Shown: one piece after another, positions 6,423 through 64,000 of the stretch
How positions within the stretch are numbered: position 1 is the stretch's first letter
Layout of the letters: the number at the start of each line of letters is the position of its first letter
Source of the DNA: Microbispora sp. NBC_01189
GTDB lineage: Bacteria > Actinomycetota > Actinomycetes > Streptosporangiales > Streptosporangiaceae
Length of the DNA: 64,000 bases
Assembly: GCF_036010665.1 (NCBI RefSeq)
Contig: NZ_CP108581.1
Coordinates: forward strand, 4,259,501-4,323,500
Direction of reading: 5' to 3'
Notes under the pieces: model-generated
Database searches by the model: none
What the model was told of the DNA's origin: nothing
Seen by the model: the letters and a program-made list of their open reading frames with translations, nothing else
Position numbers and translations under genes: made by a program

Positions 6423-7943
6423 ATGAACGGATCCTGGCGGAGGTCCAGGCCCTTCTGGGGCGGCCTGCTGGTGCTGCTCGCGGGCCTGGAGCTGCTGAGC
6501 ATCCCGTTCGCGACGAAGGCCCTGCCGCTCGTCATCCGGTCGGGCACGGTCGGGGCCACCTACCTCATCGCGCTCGTACTGGTCATCCTGGGCCTGATGA
6601 TCTGGCTCCAGCCCGGTCAGCGGGCCTTCCTCGGCGTCGTCGCCGTGCTGGTCTCGATCGCGTCGTTCGTATACGCCAACCTGGGCGGCTTCCTCGTCGG
6701 CATGCTGCTCGGCCTCGTCGGGGGCGCGCTCGCGGTCGCCTGGGCTCTGGAGGAGACGGCCCCCCGCGCCTCCGGGACGCCCGCCGAGCCCTCCGGCGCC
6801 GCCGCCCCGCCCGCCGAGCCCGCCGTCGCGGCCGCCCCGCCCGCGCCCGGCGGCGGAGAGATCACCTTCACCACCCGCCGGGTCGTCGGCCGCGACGAGC
6901 ACCTGCGGCCGGCGGGCGCCCAGGCCGGCCCGCGGACCCAGCCCCGGCCACCCGTCGCGCCGCCCACCGGAGACGGCCATCAGGTCCTCGTCGGCCGCAT
7001 CCGCCCCACTCCGCCCCCCGAGGACGCGGGCTCGCGGGGCGGCCCGGACGACGACAGTGACGACGACAGTGACGAGGGCGGTGACGGGGGTGGTGACGGG
7101 GGTGTGCGGGCGGGTTCGCCCGATGACGGGCCCCGCCCGCCCGCACGTCCGCCGGGGCGGTACGAAGGGGGGCCGGGCGCGGAGCGCAGGGCGCTGGCGA
7201 TCGCGGTGCTTCCCGTCCTCCTGGTGACGGGGACGGGCGTGTCACAGGAGGACCCCGGCGGATCCCTCCTGCACGGTGCCGTACCCAGCGCCGTCCCCAG
7301 CCTGCTCCCCGGTGCCGTCTCCGGGGCCGTGCCCAGCGCCGTCTCCGGCGTCGTCCCGGACCTGGTGCCCACGATCGTGCCCACCGACCTGCCGGGAGCA
7401 CTGGGGTCGGCGAACCCCCTGGCCCCTCTCACCGGCGGGAGGTCCCGTTCGCCCAGCGCGTCGCCGTCCCCGGGCATGGACGACCAGGAGGGCCAGGCCC
7501 CGCCCGCCGGACCCGCGGGCGGTCAGGTGAGGGTCGCGGTCGAGCCCGCCGCCGTACGCGCCCCCTCCCTCACCATGACCGGCATGAAGTTCACCGGGGT
7601 CGTGGAGATGCCCACCGCGACCGGCATGGTCAAGATGCTCCGCTTCACCATGCGGAAGGCCGTGCTGGAGCGGCCTCAGCAGACCATGGGCTCGACGACC
7701 CTCGTCGGCAGCACCTTCACCTTCGAGGGCGACGTGGTGATCTGCACGACGAAGATGACCGGCAAGCTCCTCGGCGTGCCCCAGCGGTTCACGGCCGAGC
7801 ACCCGAACATCCTGGTCAGGGCGCTCACGCTGGTGCCGTCGCTGAACGTGCCGCTGACGATGACCGACGTCGTCAGCGAGCAGCCGTACGTGACGGCCGA
7901 CTCCCTGCGCGCGGACGATCTCCACCTGGTGGCCGGCGCCTGA
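6423..7943 (+). CDS. DUF6114 membrane protein with long linker and extra C-terminal domain
   Basis: A 506-residue protein in three parts. Residues 10-110 hold four hydrophobic segments (for example WGGLLVLLAGLELLSIPF), the DUF6114 membrane domain. Residues 115-380 form a low-complexity linker with an Asp/Ser/Gly block (DDDSDDDSDEGGDGGGDGG) and repeated Ala-Val-Pro-Ser units, with another hydrophobic stretch near residue 260. Residues 385-506 form a beta-rich domain (SLTMTGMKFTGVVEMPTATG) with one Cys, resembling the exported domain of the upstream DUF6230 protein. DUF6114 proteins are usually only about 130-200 residues, so this is an extended form. The pair is probably an operon. Function unknown. 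Confidence 0.75.
   Translation: MNGSWRRSRPFWGGLLVLLAGLELLSIPFATKALPLVIRSGTVGATYLIALVLVILGLMIWLQPGQRAFLGVVAVLVSIASFVYANLGGFLVGMLLGLVGGALAVAWALEETAPRASGTPAEPSGAAAPPAEPAVAAAPPAPGGGEITFTTRRVVGRDEHLRPAGAQAGPRTQPRPPVAPPTGDGHQVLVGRIRPTPPPEDAGSRGGPDDDSDDDSDEGGDGGGDGGVRAGSPDDGPRPPARPPGRYEGGPGAERRALAIAVLPVLLVTGTGVSQEDPGGSLLHGAVPSAVPSLLPGAVSGAVPSAVSGVVPDLVPTIVPTDLPGALGSANPLAPLTGGRSRSPSASPSPGMDDQEGQAPPAGPAGGQVRVAVEPAAVRAPSLTMTGMKFTGVVEMPTATGMVKMLRFTMRKAVLERPQQTMGSTTLVGSTFTFEGDVVICTTKMTGKLLGVPQRFTAEHPNILVRALTLVPSLNVPLTMTDVVSEQPYVTADSLRADDLHLVAGA
7020..7430 (+). repeat. low-complexity coding repeats in the DUF6114 linker
   Basis: Two imperfect repeat blocks lie inside the gene: GACGACAGT and GGTGACGGG units near 7050-7105 encode the Asp/Ser/Gly tract, and GCCGTNCCCAGC-like units near 7275-7400 encode Ala-Val-Pro-Ser/Gly repeats. 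Both are in frame and probably vary in copy number between strains. Confidence 0.6.
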
Positions 7944-7979
7944 CCGGCCGCACACACCGCGCCGCACGGCCGGGAACGG

Positions 7980-8645
7980 TCAGTCGAGGTCTCCGGGCCG
8001 TACGAGCCCGGTCTCGTAGGCGTGGATGACGGCCTGAGTGCGGTCGCGCAGGCCGAGCTTCGCCAGGATCCGGGCGACGTGCGTCTTCACCGTGTGTTCG
8101 GTCACCACCAGGGCCGCCGCGATCTCGGCGTTGGACAGCCCCCGGGCCATGAGCCGCAGCACCTCGGACTCGCGCGCGGTCAGCGGCGCCTGCGCCCGCG
8201 ACGGTCCGGCCGGTGCGGGCTCGGCGGCCCGCCGCCGGGTGAACTCCGCGATGAGCCGCCGGGTGACCTTGGGCGCGAGCAGGGCGTCGCCGCGGGCCAC
8301 GATCCGTACGGATTCGGCCAGTTCCTCGGCCCGGATGTCCTTCAGCAGAAAGCCGCTCGCCCCCGCGAGGAGCGCCTGGTAGACGTACTCGTCCAGGTCG
8401 AAGGTCGTGATCATCAGAGCCTTGGCGCCGATCTCGGTGACGGTCCGGGCGGCCTCGATGCCGTTCAGCACCGGCATCCTGATGTCGAGCACGGCGACGT
8501 CCGGCCGTTCGGCCCTGGCCAGCCGTACGGCCTCCCGGCCGTCGGCTGCGGCGCCGACGACCTCGATGTCCGGCTGGGCGGCCAGCACGGCGGTGAACCC
8601 CCTGAGCACCACCGGCTGGTCGTCGGCCACGAGCACTCTGATCAT
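7980..8645 (-). CDS. LuxR-type response regulator (NarL family)
   Basis: A 221-residue regulator. The receiver domain (1-120) has the acidic pair in IRVLVADDQPVV, the phospho-Asp in VAVLDIRMPVLNG, the Thr/Ser switch in KALMITTFD and the Lys in GFLLKDI. A GerE/LuxR helix-turn-helix follows (LTARESEVLRLMARGLSNAE, residues about 155-205). Its ATG overlaps the stop of the kinase gene upstream, so the two form one transcription unit and almost certainly a cognate pair. Target genes are not evident from the surroundings. Confidence 0.95.
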   Translation of the reverse strand: MIRVLVADDQPVVLRGFTAVLAAQPDIEVVGAAADGREAVRLARAERPDVAVLDIRMPVLNGIEAARTVTEIGAKALMITTFDLDEYVYQALLAGASGFLLKDIRAEELAESVRIVARGDALLAPKVTRRLIAEFTRRRAAEPAPAGPSRAQAPLTARESEVLRLMARGLSNAEIAAALVVTEHTVKTHVARILAKLGLRDRTQAVIHAYETGLVRPGDLD

Positions 8646-9850
8646 TCGGCCGGCAGTCCCGCCTGGAGGAGGAAGCCGCCCTCCGGGCCCGGTCCGGCGA
8701 CGAACCAGCCGCCCAGGGCCGTGGCGCGCTCGCGCATGCCGATCAGCCCGTGTCCGCTCGCCTCCGGTGTCTTCTCGGCCGGGCCCGGTCCGTCGTCGGC
8801 GATGCGGAGCGCGAGCAGCGCCGGCCGGTAGGCGACCTCGATCGACACGCGGGCGCCCGGAGCGTGCTGCCTGGCGTTCGTGAGGGCCTCCTGGATGATC
8901 CGGTACGCCGAGATGTTCACGGCCTGCGGGAGCTCCCGCACCTCGCCGACGACGTCGAGGTCGACCTCCCCGCCGTGCTGCTCGATCAGCGCGGGCAGCC
9001 GCGCCAGGCCCGGTTGCGGCGCGGTCTCCGGCGGCGCCTCGGCGCGCAGGACGCCGAGGAGCCGGCGCATCTCGGTGAGCGTGCCGCGGGCCGTCGCGGC
9101 GATCTCCGCGAACTCCTTCCTGCCGTCGTCGCCCAGGTCGGCGAGCGTGTACGGCGCGGTCTCCGCCTGGACGGCGATCATCGAGATCGAGTGCGCCACG
9201 ATGTCGTGCATCTCCCTGGCGATGCGGGCGCGCTCCGCCATGGCCGCCTGCTCGCGCAGCGCCTCCAGGTTGTCCACCCGGGCTTCGCGCACCTCGTGCC
9301 GGCTTCGCCGCAGGTCGGCGAGGAGCGCCATCGCGACCGGCAGCGCCGCCCAGCCCAGGGCGGCATCGGGCCGCTGTGCTCCTGCCAGAAAGACGAGGAT
9401 GAAGGCCCCGGCAGCCGAGCCCGCCCCGAGGAGCCAGGCGGTCCTGCGGCCGACCATGCGGAAGACCGTGTAGGCGGACAGCAGTCCCGACACGTACACG
9501 GGATAGCCGAGGCCGAAGATGTTCCCGGCGATGGCGCCTTCGAAGACCAGCAGGGCGAGCGCCCCCACACCGGTCAGGGCCACGGCCCCGACGGGGTGAC
9601 GGTGGCGCACGGTGTGCGGCAGGGTCGCGAGCCCGGTGGCGAGTATCCCGATGGGACCGAGATCACCGCGGAACGCGCCGAGCTGGACCAGCGCGAGGAG
9701 GAACAGGCCGAGGCCGACGGCGATGTCGAGGAGCGGAGATTCGAGGGCTCTCCGGACGTCGAAGGCCGCCACCTGCCGCTCCATCGATCCGAGCTTCGAA
9801 GAGATGTCCACGGGGGAGAGTCTGTCTCCGATCGGAGGGAGGATCGTCAC
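8642..9850 (-). CDS. sensor histidine kinase (HisKA_3 family)
   Basis: A membrane kinase of up to 402 residues, with GTG 9850 the longest start; inner starts at the GTG for residue 14 or the Met at about 23 are possible because no clear ribosome site marks any of them. Five or so hydrophobic helices occupy residues 35-170. The phosphoacceptor helix is ARIAREMHDIVAHSISMIAV and the ATPase domain ends with LRIADDGPGPA and GHGLIGMRERATAL. This architecture is typical of actinobacterial DesK/NarX-like kinases with no large extracellular sensor. It pairs with the overlapping response regulator gene. Confidence 0.93.
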   Translation of the reverse strand: MTILPPIGDRLSPVDISSKLGSMERQVAAFDVRRALESPLLDIAVGLGLFLLALVQLGAFRGDLGPIGILATGLATLPHTVRHRHPVGAVALTGVGALALLVFEGAIAGNIFGLGYPVYVSGLLSAYTVFRMVGRRTAWLLGAGSAAGAFILVFLAGAQRPDAALGWAALPVAMALLADLRRSRHEVREARVDNLEALREQAAMAERARIAREMHDIVAHSISMIAVQAETAPYTLADLGDDGRKEFAEIAATARGTLTEMRRLLGVLRAEAPPETAPQPGLARLPALIEQHGGEVDLDVVGEVRELPQAVNISAYRIIQEALTNARQHAPGARVSIEVAYRPALLALRIADDGPGPAEKTPEASGHGLIGMRERATALGGWFVAGPGPEGGFLLQAGLPAE

Positions 9851-9872
9851 TCTGAGGAGTGAACTCAGGGGT

Positions 9873-10205
9873 TCATCGACGCCGCAGCAGGGCCAGGGCC
9901 TTCTCCTTCTCGAAGTCCAGCGCCCGGCGCGGCGCCTGGATCCGGCCGATGCGCACGCCGAGGTCCCGTACGGCCTGGGCCACCGCGGGCTCGGACAGCG
10001 CCCGGAGCGCGAAGGCCAGTTCCGCCGGCGAGACGTCGAAGCGGCGTTCCAGGTCCACCGCCTGCCGCACCGCCTCGATCTCGTCCGGGCCGAAGCGCCG
10101 GTGGGAGCCCCGGTCGCGTACGGGCGGCAGCAGGCCGAGCGCCTCCCGGTAGCGCAGCATGCGGGGGGACATGCCGAGCCGCCGTGCCGCCTCGGTGATG
10201 CGCAT
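9873..10205 (-). CDS. MerR family transcriptional regulator
   Basis: A 110-residue protein whose first 70 residues are a MerR winged helix-turn-helix (MRITEAARRLGMSPRMLRYR, then GSHRRFGPDEIEAV). The remaining 40 residues form a short dimerisation helix, with no effector domain and no cysteine metal site. It reads in the same direction as the two-component genes, 22 bp upstream of the kinase start, and diverges from ahcY with a 172-bp gap. It may regulate either the kinase operon or itself. Confidence 0.88.
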   Translation of the reverse strand: MRITEAARRLGMSPRMLRYREALGLLPPVRDRGSHRRFGPDEIEAVRQAVDLERRFDVSPAELAFALRALSEPAVAQAVRDLGVRIGRIQAPRRALDFEKEKALALLRRR

Positions 10206-10377
10206 GATGCCTCCGGTCCACGTTCCCGGACCCCACGCTAGACAGTCCCGGAGCCTTCCGGCACCCGTCGACGGCCGAATCTCACATTCTTGTGTCAGGT
10301 TCGTACTCCCGCGTATGCGTCCCGAGTCCCGCGACGCCTAAACTCGCACCGACGAGACAACGGAGAGGGACACACTC

Positions 10378-11805
<1,428 letters not shown>

Positions 11806-57818: not shown

Positions 57819-58049
57819 TCAGGCCGGTGCGACGCCTTTGCCCGCGAGCAGCCGCCGTGCCGCGCCGACGCTGGTCAGGGCCTTGATCTCGGCCACCGAC
57901 AGCGACACGCGGTAGATCTCCTCGATCGCCACCACGAGCTGGATGTGCGCCTTGCTGGTCCACTCTCCGGTGCTGTGCGGCGCGGTCTCGTCCGTGATCT
58001 CGCTCGCCGGAACCTCCAGCACGGCCGCGACCAGATCTTCGAGCCTCAC
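57819..58049 (-). CDS. stand-alone acyl/peptidyl carrier protein
   Basis: A 76-residue carrier protein whose GTG 58049 overlaps the NRPS stop as GTGA, so it is translated from the same message. The core reads HSTGEWTSKAHIQLVVAIEE followed by IYRVSLSVAEIKALTSVGAA. The phosphopantetheine Ser is in W-T-S-K instead of the common D-S-L; W-T-S variants are typical of small carrier proteins that serve FkbH-like enzymes. It probably supplies the missing second carrier site of the upstream NRPS, which ends with a C domain and a FkbH-like domain. Confidence 0.82.
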   Translation of the reverse strand: MRLEDLVAAVLEVPASEITDETAPHSTGEWTSKAHIQLVVAIEEIYRVSLSVAEIKALTSVGAARRLLAGKGVAPA

Positions 58050-61000
58050 TGTGACTCTCCTCTCCACCACGCCGGGCCCGGGATCGGCCTCCCGGGTTCG
58101 TCGAACAACCACGTGTGCTCCAGGAAGGCGGCGAGCTCGGACGCCTCCTCCGGACAGGTCAGGGCGACGACACCGGGCCGGCTTTCCCGTACGACGGCGC
58201 ACGCGGACGCATCGCCGCTCAAAAACAGGCAGTCGTCGTACGACAGGCCCCTGCCGAGCACCTCCTCGTCCAGGACGTCGAGGAGCGGGCGGCCACCCGC
58301 CCCGACGGTCACCACCCGGCGCCCGCGCGCGGACAGGGCCCCGCGGGCCGCCTCCATCAGCCGCCGCACGGGTTCGGCGGGACCGGTGGCGAGACGGTCG
58401 CCGTCGACGAGGACGACGCCCGGGTTCTCGGTCGTCAGCGCCGAGATCTGGCGGGCGAGACAGGTGCCGAGCACCGCGAAGCACTCCTGCGTGTACGGGA
58501 TGCCGCCCGCCGCGTCGCTGACCGGGTCCAGTGGGTCGCCGACGCCGTACTGGTCGAGCACGGCCGTCAGGTCGAGGCAGACGACGCCCTTGACGCCGCC
58601 GAGCTCCGCCGCGAGCCGGGCCCGGGACGCGGGGTCGTCCTCGGGAGAGGGACAGAGCACGACGACGAAGGGAGCCTGGCGTCCGTCCTGGAACGCCGCC
58701 AGCGCCCGCGCGAACTCCCGGCCCGCCTCATCCCGCCCCGGCCCGCGGCCCCAGTCGTCCGGCCGTAGCAGCACGACGTTGACGCCGTCGTGGTTGACGG
58801 CCATCGCGCTCGACGGCGTGAGCACCTGCTGGAAGACCTGGCTGTACGGCGCGAGCTCCACCTTCAGGGGCAGCCCGGCCTGGTCGGACCAGTACGCCAA
58901 CGACGTCAGCACGGGATCGGCGGTGAACGTGGCCCCGAGCACCACCGGGACGGCCTCGTCCCTCTCCGCCATTTCGCCGATCTCACCGATCTCGCCGACG
59001 GCCGGGAGGGCGTCCGTCGAGGCGGAGGTGGAGGCAGGGGAAGAGGCCGGGACCGGGCGCCCGGCGGCGAGGGGCAGGTCGGCGATCGGGGCGCCGGGGT
59101 CGGCGAGCACGCCCTCCAGCACCTGCCGGAAGCCGCGCAGCAGCCACTCCACCGTCGTCTCGTCGAACAGCTCGGTGCTGTAGTCGAGCGTCCCCCGCAG
59201 TCCGTCGGGTCCGTCCTCCATCGCCATGTTGAGGTCCATGAAGACCGAGCCGGGGTGGACCTCGACCGGGCTCACCTCCAGCCCGCCGAGGACCGGCGAC
59301 AGCGCCAGGTCGTTCGTGTAGACGAACATCACCTGGAACAGCGGGTTGTACGCCGGGTCGCGCCGTACGCCGAGATCCTCGACGAGCTTCTCCACCGGCA
59401 GGTCCTGGTGGTCGTACGCGCTGACCACCCGGTCGCGGACCCGGCGCAGCACCTCGGCGAAGCTCGGCCCGCCGGTGAGGTCGACGTTGAGCACGGTGAT
59501 GTTGGCGAAGAAGCCGATGAGCGGTTCGAGCTCGGGGACGTTGCGGCCGCCGACGGGCACGCCGAGCACGATCCGCTCCTCGTCCGCCCAGCGGTGCAGC
59601 AGCACCGCGAAGGCCGCCAGCAGCGTCACGAACACGGTCACGCCGTGACCGGCGCTGAGTGCCTCGACCCGCTCGGACATCCCGTCGGGCAGCCGGAAGA
59701 CGGCCTGCTCCCCGCTGTGGGCGGGCGTCTCCGGCCGGGGCCGGTCGTACGGCAGGGCGAGCACCCCGGGCGCGTCCGCGAGGGTCTCCCGCCAGAACTC
59801 CAACTGCCTGGCGACGACCTCGCCGCCGAGCCACTCCTGCTGCCAGAGCGTGAAGTCGGCGTACTGCACCTCCAGCTCTGGCAGCGGCGACGGGGTCCCG
59901 GTGCGGTAGGCGTCGTAGAGGATCCCGAGCTCGCGTGCCATCACCCCGATCGACCAGCTGTCGGCGACGATGTGGTGGGTTGTCAGCAGCAGCACGTGCT
60001 CGGTCTCGCCCAGCCGCACCAGGGTGGTGCGCAGCAGCGTGTCCCGGGCCAGGTCGAACGGCCGGCGGGCCTCGTCGCGCGCCAGCCGCAGCATCACGGC
60101 CTCGCGGGTGGCCGCGTCGAGTCCGCCGAGGTCGATCCGGGGGAGCGGGACGTCCCCGGCCGGGACGACGACCTGCATCGGCAGCCCGTCGATCTCCGTG
60201 AAACGGGTCCGCAGGATCTCGTGACGCCGCACGACTACCTCGAACGCGCGGCGCAGATGCGCCGCACGCAGCGGACCCCGCAGGCGCAGCGCGGCGGACA
60301 GGTGGTAGGCGGCGGCACCCGGGTTCATCAGCTCGAAGAACCACATGCGCTGCTGGGCGAAGGACAGCGGCACCGCGCCCTCGCGCGGCATCGGCACCAG
60401 CGGCGGGATCCCCGCGCCGACGGGGGCGGTGCCGGTCTCCCGTACCCGCCGGGCGAGCTCCGCCACCGTGCCGGACTCGAACACGGTGCGCAGCGTCACC
60501 TCCGTGCCGAGCGCGGCGCGCAGCCGCGAGACCATCTGGACGGCCATCAGCGAGTGCCCGCCGAGTTCGAAGAAGTCGTCGGCCGTCCCGATCTCCTCGA
60601 CGTGCAGCACGTCCTGCCAGACCTCGGCGATGATCCGCTCGGTGTCGTCGCGGGGCGGCACGTGTCCCCGCCGGCCCGCGGACGCACGTCCGGCCCGGGG
60701 CCGGGGGACGGCGTCAGGGGCGGGAAGCGCGTGGTGGTCGACCTTCCCGCTCGTGTTCAGCGGCAGCTCGTCCAGCCAGACGTACACGGCCGGGAGCATG
60801 ATCTCCGGCAGCCTCCGGCGCAGTGACTCGCGCAGCTCCGGCGGCTCGGGCCGGGCGTCGCCGCCGACGAGGTAGGCGGCGAGGTAACGGTGCCCGCCGG
60901 AGTCCTCGCGGGTGACCACCGCCGCGTGCCGTACGGCGGGCAGCTCGGCCAGGGCGCTCTCGATCTCGCCGAGCTCGATGCGGTGCCCGCCGAGCTTGAT

Positions 61001-64000
61001 CTGCCGGTCCACCCGGCCGAGGAACTCCAGCGTGCCGTCCGGGCGATAGCGCACCCGGTCGCCGGTGCGGTAGATCCGCTCACCCTCGGCGAACGGCGAG
61101 GCGGCGAACCGCGCGGAGGTGAGCTCGGGACGGTTCAGGTAGCCGCGGGCGACGCCCTCGCCGCCGATCCACAGCTCGCCGGGTACGCCGGCCGGGACCG
61201 GCTCCCGGTTCGCGTCGAGGACGTACAGCGTCGTGTTGGCGACGGGCCTGCCGATGGACACGCCCGCCTCGGCGTCCGCGACCTGCCAGGCGGTGGACCA
61301 GATGGTCGTCTCCGTGGGGCCGTACATGTTGAGCACCCGGCCCCGGGCCGTGGCGGCGAGGCGGCTCGCGAGCGTGCCGGTCAGCGCCTCGCCGCCGACC
61401 AGGATCGTGTCCACCTCGGCCAGCGCCCGCGCGGTCGCCGGGTCGGCCAGCAGGACGCTCGCCAGCGAGGGGGTGAACTGCACGTGGGTCACGCGGTGGC
61501 GCCCGATCTGCGCGGCGACGCCGTAGCTCTCGCCGCCCCCCGCGGCGGAGGCGGCGACGTCGACGTCGACGTCGAACCCGCGCCGTACGCCGTCGAGCCG
61601 CGGCAGGGAGGCGAGCACCTCGGCGGTGGGCACGCCGAAGTCGACCAGGCAGGCGACCTCGTCGACCCCGGCGTCCCTGATGTGCCCGGCCATCGCGGCG
61701 CACTCCTCGGCGGTGCCCATCAGCGCCCCGCCGTCGTAGTAGTACTCGAATCCGTGGTCGAGTAGCGCCTCGACGTCCTCCTCGGTCGGCTCGCCGTCGA
61801 TGCCGAGGCTCGGCGCGAGAGACCGGACCAGACCGAACGACCTCCGCAGGTATTCGCGGAAGGGCGAGCGCACCAGCTCGCGCACCTCCCGCGCGTCGGT
61901 GCCGACAAAGGTGTGCGCCATGAGCGTGACGTGGCCGTCGCCCTCGTGCCCGGCGTCCCGCCACGCCCGCCGGTAGACCTCGGCCTTGCCGGCCAGCTCG
62001 CCGAGGCTCTGTCCGAGCAGGTGGGTGAGCAGGCCCGCGCCGAGCTCGCCGGCCAGCCGGAAGGTCTCCGGGCTGCCCGCCGCCGCCAGCCACACGGGCA
62101 GCTCGGGCCGGACCGGACGCGGGAAGGTGCGCACCTCGATCTCCCGGCCGGCCCCGTTGCGCACGCGCGTCGTCTCGCCGCGCCACAGGCGCCTGACGGT
62201 CTCGATCCCCTCGCGCATGATCTCCCGGCGCCGCTCGTACGCGTCCGGGGCCAGGGCGAAGTCGTCGGCGTGCCAGCCGGAGGCGAAGGACAGGCCCGCC
62301 CGCCCGCCGGACAGGTTGTCCACGACCGCCCACTCCTCGGCCACCCGGATCGGGTCGTGCAGCGGCAGGACCACGCTGCCGGCCCGCAGCTCGACGCGTT
62401 CGGTGATCGCCGCCAGCGCGGCGGATGTCACGGCCGGGTTGGGATACAGGCCGCCGAACGGGTCGAAGTGCCGTTCCGGGGTCCAGACGGCCGAGAAGCC
62501 GTTGCGGTCGGCGAACCGCGCGCCCTCCAGCAGCAGCCGGTACCGGTCCTCCGGGTCCCCGTCCTCGCTGCTGACCGCGAAGTAGAACAGCCCGAAGCCG
62601 AGGCGGCGGCGGGCCGCGGGGACGCGTGCGGCGCCGCCGGGCAGTACGTCGCCGTCGTCCTGCAGCACGACCTTCCAGCCGTGCGTCAGCGGCCACAGCA
62701 GTTCGAGCGCGGCGATGTCGAACGTCACGCCGGTGACCGCCAGCCAGACGCCATCGTCGCGGTCGCCGAGCAGGCCGTCCATGGCCGACATGAAGTTGGC
62801 CAGGGCCGCGTGCCCGACCACGACCCCCTTGGGCCGTCCGGTGGAGCCCGACGTGTAGATGACGTACGCCATGTCGTCCGCCGTTCCACCCCGACCGGCG
62901 TCGTGCGGCCCCGGCTCCGACGGGCCGGGCCCGGCGTCGTCCACGAGCACCTGGCGCAGCGGCCGGGAGCCGAACAGGTGCCGTTGCGACCGGGTGGTCA
63001 CGACGACCTCCGCCGCCGCGTCGTCCAGGATGTAGGCCAGCCGGTCCGGCGGGAGGGACGGGTCGAGAGGCAGGTAGCCGTTGCCGGACCGGAGCACGCC
63101 GAGCAGGCTCACGATCATGTCGGGTGAACGCTCGACGCAGACGGCGACGGGCCGGCCCGGGGTGATCCTTTCCCCGCGGAGCCGGTGGGCCAGCGCCGCG
63201 GACCGGGCGTCGAGCTCGGCGTAGGACAGCGTCCCGTCGCGGAAGGCGACGGCGGTGGCGTCCGGCGTGCGGGCCGCCTGCCGCGTCACCCGCTCGTGGA
63301 CGGGCGCGTGGTCGTGGTCCCTCGCCGTACGGTTCCACTCGCCGAGCAGCAGGTCGCGCTCCCCGGCGGTGAGCATGGGCAGCTCGCCGACCCGCCGTCC
63401 GGGGCCGGCGACCATGCCCTCCAGCAGCACCCGCCAGTGGCCGAGCAGGCGGCGCATCGAGTCGCCGCCGAAGACGTCGGCGTTGTAGAGCACGGCGGCC
63501 GTCGGCTCGGTCCCCGGGCCCGAGCCGCGCGGATCGACGAACTCCAGGGTCAGGTCGAACTCGGTGGCCGGCCGCCCGCTGGGCAGCGGCTCGACCCGCA
63601 GCCCCGGCAGGTCCAGCGTGGACATCGAGGTGTTCTGCACCACGAACAACGCCTGGAACAGCGGAGACCGGGCCGGGTCCCGGCGCGGACGCAGCGCCTC
63701 CACCAGGTGTTCGACCGGCGTGTCCTGGTTCTCGAAGGCGTCCAGGGCGCTGTCGCGCACACGCCGGAGGAGGTCGAGGACGGTGGGGTCGTCCGACAGG
63801 TCCGCGCGCAGGACGAGGGTATTGACGAAGAACCCGATGAGGTTCTCCACCTCGCCCCGGGTTCGGTTGGCCACCGGCGTGCCGACCAGGGTGTCGCTCT
63901 CGCCGGAGTACCGCGACAGCAGGATGTGGAAGGCGGCGAGGAGCACCATGAACCTGGTGGCCCCCTCGCGCCGGGCGAGCGCGTCGACCGCGTCGACCAG
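58046..64000 (-). CDS. non-ribosomal peptide synthetase, partial: C-A(LLM)-PCP-C-FkbH-like
   Basis: The frame is open to the right edge; 1984 residues are visible. Order from the N-terminal side: second half of a condensation domain (IGFFVNTLVLRADLSDDP, NQDTPVEHLVEALR); an adenylation domain with YTSGSTGRPKGVVVGH, NMYGPTETTIW, YRTGDRVRYRPDG and NTSGKVDHHALP; inside it a luciferase-like monooxygenase; a carrier domain (FFELGGHSLMAVQM); a second condensation domain (LSFAQQRMWFFELMN, HHIVADSWS); and a 300-residue FkbH-like end. There is no second A domain, no thioesterase and no epimerase in view. It is co-translated with the carrier protein gene. Upstream modules lie outside the window. Confidence 0.95.
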   Translation of the reverse strand: MVDAVDALARREGATRFMVLLAAFHILLSRYSGESDTLVGTPVANRTRGEVENLIGFFVNTLVLRADLSDDPTVLDLLRRVRDSALDAFENQDTPVEHLVEALRPRRDPARSPLFQALFVVQNTSMSTLDLPGLRVEPLPSGRPATEFDLTLEFVDPRGSGPGTEPTAAVLYNADVFGGDSMRRLLGHWRVLLEGMVAGPGRRVGELPMLTAGERDLLLGEWNRTARDHDHAPVHERVTRQAARTPDATAVAFRDGTLSYAELDARSAALAHRLRGERITPGRPVAVCVERSPDMIVSLLGVLRSGNGYLPLDPSLPPDRLAYILDDAAAEVVVTTRSQRHLFGSRPLRQVLVDDAGPGPSEPGPHDAGRGGTADDMAYVIYTSGSTGRPKGVVVGHAALANFMSAMDGLLGDRDDGVWLAVTGVTFDIAALELLWPLTHGWKVVLQDDGDVLPGGAARVPAARRRLGFGLFYFAVSSEDGDPEDRYRLLLEGARFADRNGFSAVWTPERHFDPFGGLYPNPAVTSAALAAITERVELRAGSVVLPLHDPIRVAEEWAVVDNLSGGRAGLSFASGWHADDFALAPDAYERRREIMREGIETVRRLWRGETTRVRNGAGREIEVRTFPRPVRPELPVWLAAAGSPETFRLAGELGAGLLTHLLGQSLGELAGKAEVYRRAWRDAGHEGDGHVTLMAHTFVGTDAREVRELVRSPFREYLRRSFGLVRSLAPSLGIDGEPTEEDVEALLDHGFEYYYDGGALMGTAEECAAMAGHIRDAGVDEVACLVDFGVPTAEVLASLPRLDGVRRGFDVDVDVAASAAGGGESYGVAAQIGRHRVTHVQFTPSLASVLLADPATARALAEVDTILVGGEALTGTLASRLAATARGRVLNMYGPTETTIWSTAWQVADAEAGVSIGRPVANTTLYVLDANREPVPAGVPGELWIGGEGVARGYLNRPELTSARFAASPFAEGERIYRTGDRVRYRPDGTLEFLGRVDRQIKLGGHRIELGEIESALAELPAVRHAAVVTREDSGGHRYLAAYLVGGDARPEPPELRESLRRRLPEIMLPAVYVWLDELPLNTSGKVDHHALPAPDAVPRPRAGRASAGRRGHVPPRDDTERIIAEVWQDVLHVEEIGTADDFFELGGHSLMAVQMVSRLRAALGTEVTLRTVFESGTVAELARRVRETGTAPVGAGIPPLVPMPREGAVPLSFAQQRMWFFELMNPGAAAYHLSAALRLRGPLRAAHLRRAFEVVVRRHEILRTRFTEIDGLPMQVVVPAGDVPLPRIDLGGLDAATREAVMLRLARDEARRPFDLARDTLLRTTLVRLGETEHVLLLTTHHIVADSWSIGVMARELGILYDAYRTGTPSPLPELEVQYADFTLWQQEWLGGEVVARQLEFWRETLADAPGVLALPYDRPRPETPAHSGEQAVFRLPDGMSERVEALSAGHGVTVFVTLLAAFAVLLHRWADEERIVLGVPVGGRNVPELEPLIGFFANITVLNVDLTGGPSFAEVLRRVRDRVVSAYDHQDLPVEKLVEDLGVRRDPAYNPLFQVMFVYTNDLALSPVLGGLEVSPVEVHPGSVFMDLNMAMEDGPDGLRGTLDYSTELFDETTVEWLLRGFRQVLEGVLADPGAPIADLPLAAGRPVPASSPASTSASTDALPAVGEIGEIGEMAERDEAVPVVLGATFTADPVLTSLAYWSDQAGLPLKVELAPYSQVFQQVLTPSSAMAVNHDGVNVVLLRPDDWGRGPGRDEAGREFARALAAFQDGRQAPFVVVLCPSPEDDPASRARLAAELGGVKGVVCLDLTAVLDQYGVGDPLDPVSDAAGGIPYTQECFAVLGTCLARQISALTTENPGVVLVDGDRLATGPAEPVRRLMEAARGALSARGRRVVTVGAGGRPLLDVLDEEVLGRGLSYDDCLFLSGDASACAVVRESRPGVVALTCPEEASELAAFLEHTWLFDEPGRPIPGPAWWRGESQ
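58075..58960 (-). other. degenerate FkbH-like (HAD-IIIC) domain at the NRPS C-terminus
   Basis: An SGNH-like first part (AVPVVLGATFTADPV, YWSDQAGLPLKVELAPYSQV, YTQECFAVLGTCLARQISAL) precedes a shortened HAD part. Motif I survives as VVLVDGDRLATG (D-x-D kept, Thr lost). Motif II is GAGG instead of SKN, the W..K segment of motif III is deleted, and motif IV reads FLSGDASACAVV instead of FxDDNPxE-like. The family end VVALTCPEEASELAAFLEHT then WLFDEP is well kept. The domain is probably non-catalytic and may act as a docking site for the carrier protein. Confidence 0.75.
61560..62620 (-). other. luciferase-like monooxygenase domain embedded in the NRPS A domain
   Basis: Between A-domain motifs A4 (VTFDIAALELLWPLTHG) and A5 (NMYGPTETT) lies an insert of about 350 residues. 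It starts RLGFGLFYFAVSSEDG and contains WTPERHFDPFGGLYPNPAV, LPLHDPIRVAEEWAVVDNLS, GRAGLSFASGWHADDFALAP and ALMGTAEECAAMAGHIRDAG. This is the bacterial luciferase fold that binds reduced flavin, in the subgroup found within NRPS and PKS proteins. Adenylation motifs on both sides are intact. It probably hydroxylates the activated or carrier-bound building block. Confidence 0.88.

What the first reader, a model, noticed from the sequence alone, without database searches (positions are those of the whole stretch)
61535..62680. Monooxygenase embedded in an NRPS adenylation domain between A4 and A5
The A domain is split after VTFDIAALELLWPLTHG by about 380 residues containing a complete luciferase-like monooxygenase, and resumes with the A5 motif NMYGPTETT. 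Motifs A3, A5, A7, A8 and A10 are all intact, so the host domain should still activate its substrate. Embedded LLM domains are known as a subgroup, but their chemistry is established in few systems. The pocket residues I read by alignment to GrsA (about D-I-L-F-I-V-M-I-W-K) do not match a code I recognise, so the substrate is open.
Basis: partly seen in the sequence, partly recalled or inferred. Interest (0 to 1): 0.8.

Follow-up and report, generated by a model that had tools for sequence, protein, structure and literature searches.

The report
Glycine-loading domain with built-in oxygenase
A peptide-making enzyme of this bacterium carries a flavin-dependent oxygenase inserted inside the domain that selects its building block; the selecting domain reads as glycine-specific, so this is a further example of a known glycine-oxidising module, here in an unusual place in its assembly line.

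Summary
On the minus strand, a 2285-aa NRPS (C1:4317546-4324403; its last 1984 aa lie in the window) has an adenylation domain interrupted between A4 and A5 by a complete MupA/Atu3671-family luciferase-like monooxygenase (TIGR04020, 486-491 bits, cut-off 244), without stop or frameshift. Aligned, it is D-I-L-Q-L-G-M-I-W-K, the string that a 2025 survey gives for all four of its monooxygenase-bearing glycine domains. I extended this: 25 of 25 A4/A5-interrupted hosts (Streptomyces, the window's own class, Alpha- and Betaproteobacteria, Nostoc, Deinococcus) fit D[IM][LV]Q.GM[IV]W, against 1 of 56 uninterrupted A domains. The substrate is very probably glycine, and the likely chemistry is alpha-hydroxylation of carrier-bound glycine, as proposed for myxothiazol and melithiazol. 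A flavin reductase gene lies in the cluster. Unusual is the position: a C domain and a diverged FkbH-like region follow in the same protein, with no carrier or thioesterase. Of the 25, only the window and one other were seen to have a C domain next. Whether the hydroxyglycine is kept or cleaved to an amide is undecided. New member of a known kind.

The parts
58046..64000 (-). NRPS gene, 3' 1984 codons plus stop; the gene starts about 0.9 kb beyond the window (2285 aa in all: TubC_N docking - C - A(N) - LLM - A(C) - PCP - C - FkbH-like region)
62639..63328 (-). A domain, N-terminal part (A3 at 62825-62866, A4 at 62678-62728)
   Evidence: Pfam AMP-binding, best stretch residues 239-453 of P0001; motif positions and coordinates
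61586..62596 (-). Embedded MupA/Atu3671-family FMN-dependent luciferase-like monooxygenase
   Evidence: TIGR04020 486.1 bits, model 1-340/341; closest solved structure by sequence 6ket (PuwE), 1.5e-108
61532..61585 (-). Linker between LLM and the resumed A domain (RRGFDVDVDVAASAAGGG)
60722..61531 (-). A domain, C-terminal part: Q at position 278 (HVQFTPS), A5, A7, A8, A10
60443..60631 (-). PCP (GGHSL motif)
   Evidence: Pfam PP-binding 6.5e-17; coordinates
59069..60382 (-). Second C domain, downstream of the interrupted module (HHIVADS)
   Evidence: Pfam Condensation, best stretch residues 1207-1644 of P0001; motif and coordinates
58049..59038 (-). C-terminal region, diverged FkbH-like; no Pfam or NCBIfam hit
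   Evidence: 29% identity, E 1e-15 to the FkbH-like part of g53 in the same cluster, which scores 86.6 bits with TIGR01686 against a cut-off of 146.65; 58049-59020 gave no family hit at E up to 10

Best explanation
This is a glycine-incorporating NRPS module whose A domain carries an FMN-dependent monooxygenase between A4 and A5. The split A domain still works as one enzyme and loads glycine onto the PCP (inferred from intact motifs and the code). The upstream C domain joins it to the chain, probably delivered from the preceding KS-AT-ACP protein. The LLM domain then hydroxylates the alpha carbon of the PCP-bound acyl-glycine, using FMNH2 that could come from the flavin reductase encoded in the cluster (inferred from relatives). 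The N-acyl alpha-hydroxyglycine is then either passed on through the C domain that follows, or splits into a primary amide and a glyoxylyl thioester as proposed for myxothiazol. I favour onward passage slightly, because the next domain is a C domain with its HHxxxD motif and not a thioesterase. The confidence given is for glycine alpha-hydroxylation, whichever the fate.
For: Complete LLM, 486-491 bits. Intact A motifs and PCP. Code DILQLGMIW plus K, identical to that of four MOX-bearing Gly domains in PMC12283262 (passages). 25 of 25 interrupted hosts match D[IM][LV]Q.GM[IV]W against 1 of 56 plain A domains. Precedent for Gly alpha-hydroxylation by an A4-A5 insert in myxothiazol and melithiazol (PMC10204066 passages; also PMC11342130 passages). 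Flavin reductase PF01613 4.3e-37 inside the cluster, C1:4336059-4336502. Nearest solved structure by sequence is the PuwE LLM, 6ket; its cluster paper credits the aminotransferase and monooxygenase of PuwE with making a 3-amino-2-hydroxy acyl chain (PMC4219810 passages).
Against: No biochemistry was done. The flavin reductase may serve the neighbouring tryptophan halogenase instead. Relatives were found with a query that included the host A flanks, so hosts with other codes are somewhat less likely to be found. The code is not the only glycine code: the second A domain of LgrA, recalled as Gly-specific, differs at several of these positions in the alignment. No product is known to me for this cluster, so the fate of the hydroxyglycine is not shown.
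Confidence: 0.8

Rival explanations
1. Oxidative release (a fate, so it overlaps with the best explanation): the module is functionally terminal. Alpha-hydroxylation of the glycyl residue leads to cleavage of the N-C(alpha) bond, freeing the chain as a primary amide; the following C and FkbH-like regions are vestigial or act in another step.
For: This is the fate proposed for myxothiazol and melithiazol. The gene is the last of its strand run, no carrier follows the last C domain, and Pfam shows no thioesterase in the ten frames or in g55-g58; my gene caller missed some genes, so a thioesterase is not excluded. Of the 25 interrupted proteins, 20 end 68-93 residues after the PCP motif and 2 have a thioesterase-like motif.
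Against: The window protein continues with a full C domain whose HHxxxD motif is present. In S. cellulosae the same order runs MOX module - C - A, followed by further carrier sequence in the next annotated gene, so the line goes on there. Several of the 20 that end after the PCP are followed by a PKS or NRPS gene, so ending there does not by itself mean termination.
Confidence: 0.4
2. The LLM hydroxylates the methylene of the polyketide extender added just before glycine (between its beta-keto group and the amide), as related LLMs are assigned to do on polyketides, and not glycine itself.
For: The preceding protein g46 is KS-AT-ACP with no reductase hit, so a beta-keto acyl chain could reach this module. 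An LLM in a PKS module is assigned an alpha-hydroxylation in palmerolide (PMC8739492 passages).
Against: The pairing of the insert with the Gly code in 25 of 25 hosts, and the published glycine assignments.
Confidence: 0.1
3. The inserted LLM is catalytically dead or the A domain is inactive.
For: Nothing positive; activity is untested.
Against: Full-length TIGR04020 match, 6ket aligned over query residues 2-336 with 366 bits, the core A motifs looked for are present.
Confidence: 0.07

Closest known systems
MtaG / MelG type, myxothiazol and melithiazol synthetases (monooxygenase between A4 and A5 of a Gly A domain; protein names recalled)
   Same: Same insertion point, same kind of host (Gly), flavin monooxygenase insert (PMC10204066 passages; PMC11342130 passages).
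   Different: There a thioesterase follows and the chain leaves as an amide; here a C domain and a diverged FkbH-like region follow and no thioesterase was seen. Their sequences were not on hand and not compared.
The four MOX-bearing Gly A domains of PMC12283262
   Same: Identical ten-residue code DILQLGMIWK (passage).
   Different: Which four systems these are was not seen in the passages read.
SolF, solanimycin synthetase
   Same: Flavin monooxygenase inside an A domain predicted to activate Gly; alpha-hydroxyglycine retained in an internal position of solanimycin B.
   Different: Insert lies between A8 and A9.
MOx-bearing A2 of corallorazine-like clusters (Serratia, Pseudomonas)
   Same: MOx within a Gly A domain (PMC11342130 passages).
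   Different: Host clusters differ; sequences not compared.
Streptomyces cellulosae plasmid cluster (L107, CP109198.1)
   Same: PKS protein, then C-A(Gly,MOX)-PCP-C; a second, plain glycine-like A domain (DILQLGLIW); a tryptophan 7-halogenase gene; tblastn of g45 gives 41.7% identity over 1913 positions.
   Different: After that C comes an ordinary A domain; the cluster also has a type III PKS and enoyl-CoA hydratases, and tblastn with the FkbH-like region found nothing there at 1e-5.
PuwE LLM domain (PDB 6ket)
   Same: Closest solved structure by sequence, 366 bits.
   Different: In PuwE the monooxygenase lies between PKS and NRPS modules, not inside an A domain (PMC4219810 passages).

Membership tests
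MupA/Atu3671 family FMN-dependent LLM (TIGR04020) | Score above the curated cut-off (244.45 bits) over the whole model | tested here: met
   486.1 bits, positions 1-340 of 341; 491.4 bits; the other 16 matches in this genome stay below the cut-off
MOX-interrupted A domain of the myxothiazol/melithiazol kind | Insert lies between A4 and A5 | tested here: met
MOX-interrupted A domain of the myxothiazol/melithiazol kind | Host A domain has a glycine code | tested here: met
   DILQLGMIW plus K in A10; same string in PMC12283262
MOX-interrupted A domain of the myxothiazol/melithiazol kind | A thioesterase follows and the chain leaves as an amide | tested here: not met
   PCP is followed by C and an FkbH-like region, no thioesterase hit. 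This lowers the claim of myxothiazol-like termination, not of myxothiazol-like oxidation; release itself is not testable here
MOX-interrupted A domain of the myxothiazol/melithiazol kind | Alpha-hydroxylation of PCP-bound glycine | not testable with these tools
   needs an assay or a product
FkbH (TIGR01686) for the C-terminal region | Match to TIGR01686 or FkbH_N | tested here: not met
   no hit at E up to 10; only similarity to the FkbH-like part of g53, itself below cut-off

The most novel reading that the evidence does not exclude
The module is a non-terminal member of the A4/A5 MOX-Gly kind: alpha-hydroxyglycine (or the N-acylimine derived from it) is made in mid-line and handed by the following C domain to a partner held by an FkbH-type carrier, for instance the FkbH-like-PCP protein g53 of the same cluster, giving an oxidised glycine joined to a glyceryl-type unit in a product that may also bear a halogenated residue.
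Probability: 0.35. Interest if true: 0.55.

Novelty: new member of a known kind. Interest (0 to 1): 0.36.

Why it matters
It suggests that the A4/A5 monooxygenase insert can be read as a glycine signature: in all 25 cases examined here the host carries a glycine-type code, across Actinomycetota, Alpha- and Betaproteobacteria, a cyanobacterium and Deinococcus. That would make oxidised glycine, or a terminal amide, a direct structure prediction for clusters with this insert. In this cluster the position of the module makes the fate of the hydroxyglycine a testable question.

Tried and rejected
A first automatic read of position 278 gave 12 of 25 interrupted and 0 of 44 plain domains fitting a looser pattern, because it took the wrong TP motif in the other 13; I discarded it and read the columns from MAFFT alignments of the A halves, which also kept more plain domains (56). 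Host halves against the PDB put linear gramicidin synthetase LgrA first, which looked like glycine support because LgrA's second A domain is recalled as Gly-specific; the alignments show that the score is the sum of two domains, and that LgrA domain has different residues at several code positions, so I dropped it. A single-sequence fold of the C-terminal region gave mean pLDDT 43.5 and was not used. Colibrimycin was considered as the product from memory; its paper is not held and the passages read in another paper do not bear on it, so nothing is claimed. Passages of PMC10127204 and PMC12144821 (an LLM gene of the ichizinone cluster credited with a possible alpha-carbon oxidation) were read and not used further; a search for MtaG and MelG by name listed only unrelated papers. 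One origin of the insert: LLM tree of 69 rows, 25 interrupted, fewest changes 4 (left out before the tree: second copies of the same loci, the distant own-genome hits L002-L008, and matches covering under 290 query residues); the AU test, p 0.096, does not reject one clade and does not show one. In the quick host tree the 25 MOX hosts share a branch with 3 of 56 plain rows, 2 nested and 1 long-branched at the base. A search for the C-terminal region in viral contigs found no relative. One search was run in the wrong frame and gave no match; repeat it in frame.
Full report
What is there. The minus-strand frame 58046-64000 is open for 1984 codons to its stop and continues 0.9 kb past the window, giving 2285 aa. 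Pfam shows TubC_N, two C stretches, AMP-binding in two stretches with Bac_luciferase between them, AMP-binding_C and PP-binding. NCBIfam TIGR04020 scores 486.1 bits over positions 1-340 of 341; the whole-genome search gives 491.4 bits with no stop inside, the only one of 17 matches in this genome above the cut-off of 244.45. The insert lies after A4 and before A5 and counts 371 residues between the words QDDGDV and ESYGV. The same junction occurs in 24 further loci, which speaks against an assembly join.

The pocket code. That paper says that four of its Gly-activating domains carry a MOX domain and all share DILQLGMIWK, which is this code.

Is the pairing general? I searched with the A3-to-A5 stretch including the insert. 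In the order set, 52 of 345 genomes had a match at 1e-60, but in only 2 of 345 (own and G044) did it run through both A flanks. In an even sample of the class, 3 genomes of 394 besides the own one held five such matches at E up to 1e-100. The 15 genomes of the genus, own included, held no other TIGR04020 match at 1e-70. Searches scored only a few candidates a genome, so they are lower bounds. Among plasmid records, 29 of 81 with a match cover at least 80% of the query. I fetched 18 of those 29; the 11 left out belong to species already fetched or to their genera. With six loci from genomes and the window this gives 25 interrupted domains. All 25 fit D[IM][LV]Q.GM[IV]W; of 56 uninterrupted A domains in the fetched loci 1 fits. 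That one is g47 of this very cluster; a further plain glycine-like code, DILQLGLIW, is in the S. cellulosae cluster. The rows are related and were found with a query that contains host flanks, so the contrast is not a count of independent events; but the hosts include Streptomyces and genomes of the window's own class, Alpha- and Betaproteobacteria, a cyanobacterium and Deinococcus.

Position in the line. Of the 25, 20 end 68-93 residues after the PCP motif, 2 have a thioesterase-like motif, 2 (window and S. cellulosae) go on with a C domain, and in 1 (B. glumae) no PCP motif was found by the pattern used. Several that end after the PCP are followed by PKS or NRPS genes (Streptomyces KN37; Nostoc; Deinococcus; Aliiroseovarius; Methylobacterium, by a KS motif), while four alphaproteobacterial ones are followed by a phosphopantetheinyl transferase gene. 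So internal and terminal use both look likely within the kind.

The cluster. Upstream in the genome lie g46 KS-AT-ACP, g47 C-A-PCP, g48 C-PCP-C, g49 A-PCP, g50 tryptophan halogenase, g52 MFS transporter and g53 with a PCP and a C-type domain and an FkbH-like part below the family cut-off; then g55 E1-type dehydrogenase, g56 with a Trp dioxygenase match, g57 carbamoyltransferase and g58 A-PCP-C. A flavin reductase gene missed by my gene caller lies between g49 and g50 at C1:4336059-4336502. It could reduce flavin for the halogenase, the LLM or both. The C-terminal part of g45 (58049-59020) has no Pfam or NCBIfam match but the region is 29% identical, E 1e-15, to the FkbH-like part of g53; 7 of 120 family genomes, own included, hold something similar at 1e-8. 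g45's last C domain has no carrier after it, and g53 has an FkbH-like part and carrier with no C before it in the frame read, so a split module between them is conceivable; this is inference.

Mechanism. Shown: a full LLM in a Gly-coded A domain with intact motifs, in a cluster with a flavin reductase. Inferred from precedent: alpha-hydroxylation of PCP-bound glycine, as proposed for myxothiazol and melithiazol with an A4-A5 insert, and for solanimycin with an A8-A9 insert, where solanimycin B keeps the alpha-hydroxyglycine (PMC10204066 passages; PMC11342130 passages). Undecided: whether this product keeps the hydroxyglycine or is released as an amide. Passages of two further papers name monooxygenases among A-domain inserts (PMC8949500), one with A4-A5 as an insertion site (PMC8097286).

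Verdict. A real, intact member of a described kind of interrupted A domain. The added value is the corrected code, the generality of the glycine pairing, and the unusual C-FkbH-like continuation.

Noticed in passing
C1:4336059-4336502 minus (outside the window, region coordinate 76559-77002): Flavin reductase gene (PF01613, 4.3e-37) inside the cluster between the tryptophan halogenase and an A-PCP gene.
   Followed up: partly
L009 10519-13719 minus (g47, outside the window): A second, uninterrupted A domain in the same cluster with the identical code DILQLGMIW; in the host tree it pairs with a plain glycine-like domain of the S. cellulosae cluster, nested among the MOX hosts, which could mean loss of the insert.
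   Followed up: partly
L010 about 7300-10568 minus (outside the window): E1-type dehydrogenase gene (g55) followed by frames that by eye look like E1-beta and a lipoyl E2 acyltransferase, next to the FkbH-like-PCP gene g53; the two-carbon-unit systems of naphthyridinomycin and quinocarcin are recalled as similar.
   Followed up: no
L107 (CP109198.1 375192-406775): Streptomyces cellulosae plasmid cluster with the same PKS to MOX-Gly-module to C order, a tryptophan 7-halogenase, an aspartyl/asparaginyl beta-hydroxylase and a type III PKS with enoyl-CoA hydratases.
   Followed up: partly
L114, L116, L117, L118, L120, L121, L122: Alphaproteobacterial plasmids share a small locus: a PKS gene, in five of these seven a glycosyltransferase gene, an NRPS with the MOX-Gly module, and in four of seven a phosphopantetheinyl transferase, with glycosyltransferase or other sugar genes near in most.
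   Followed up: no
G316:C2:26702-30115 minus (L138, L144): A 2372-codon open frame holds two matches to the FkbH-like region seen at the C-terminus of g45.
   Followed up: no
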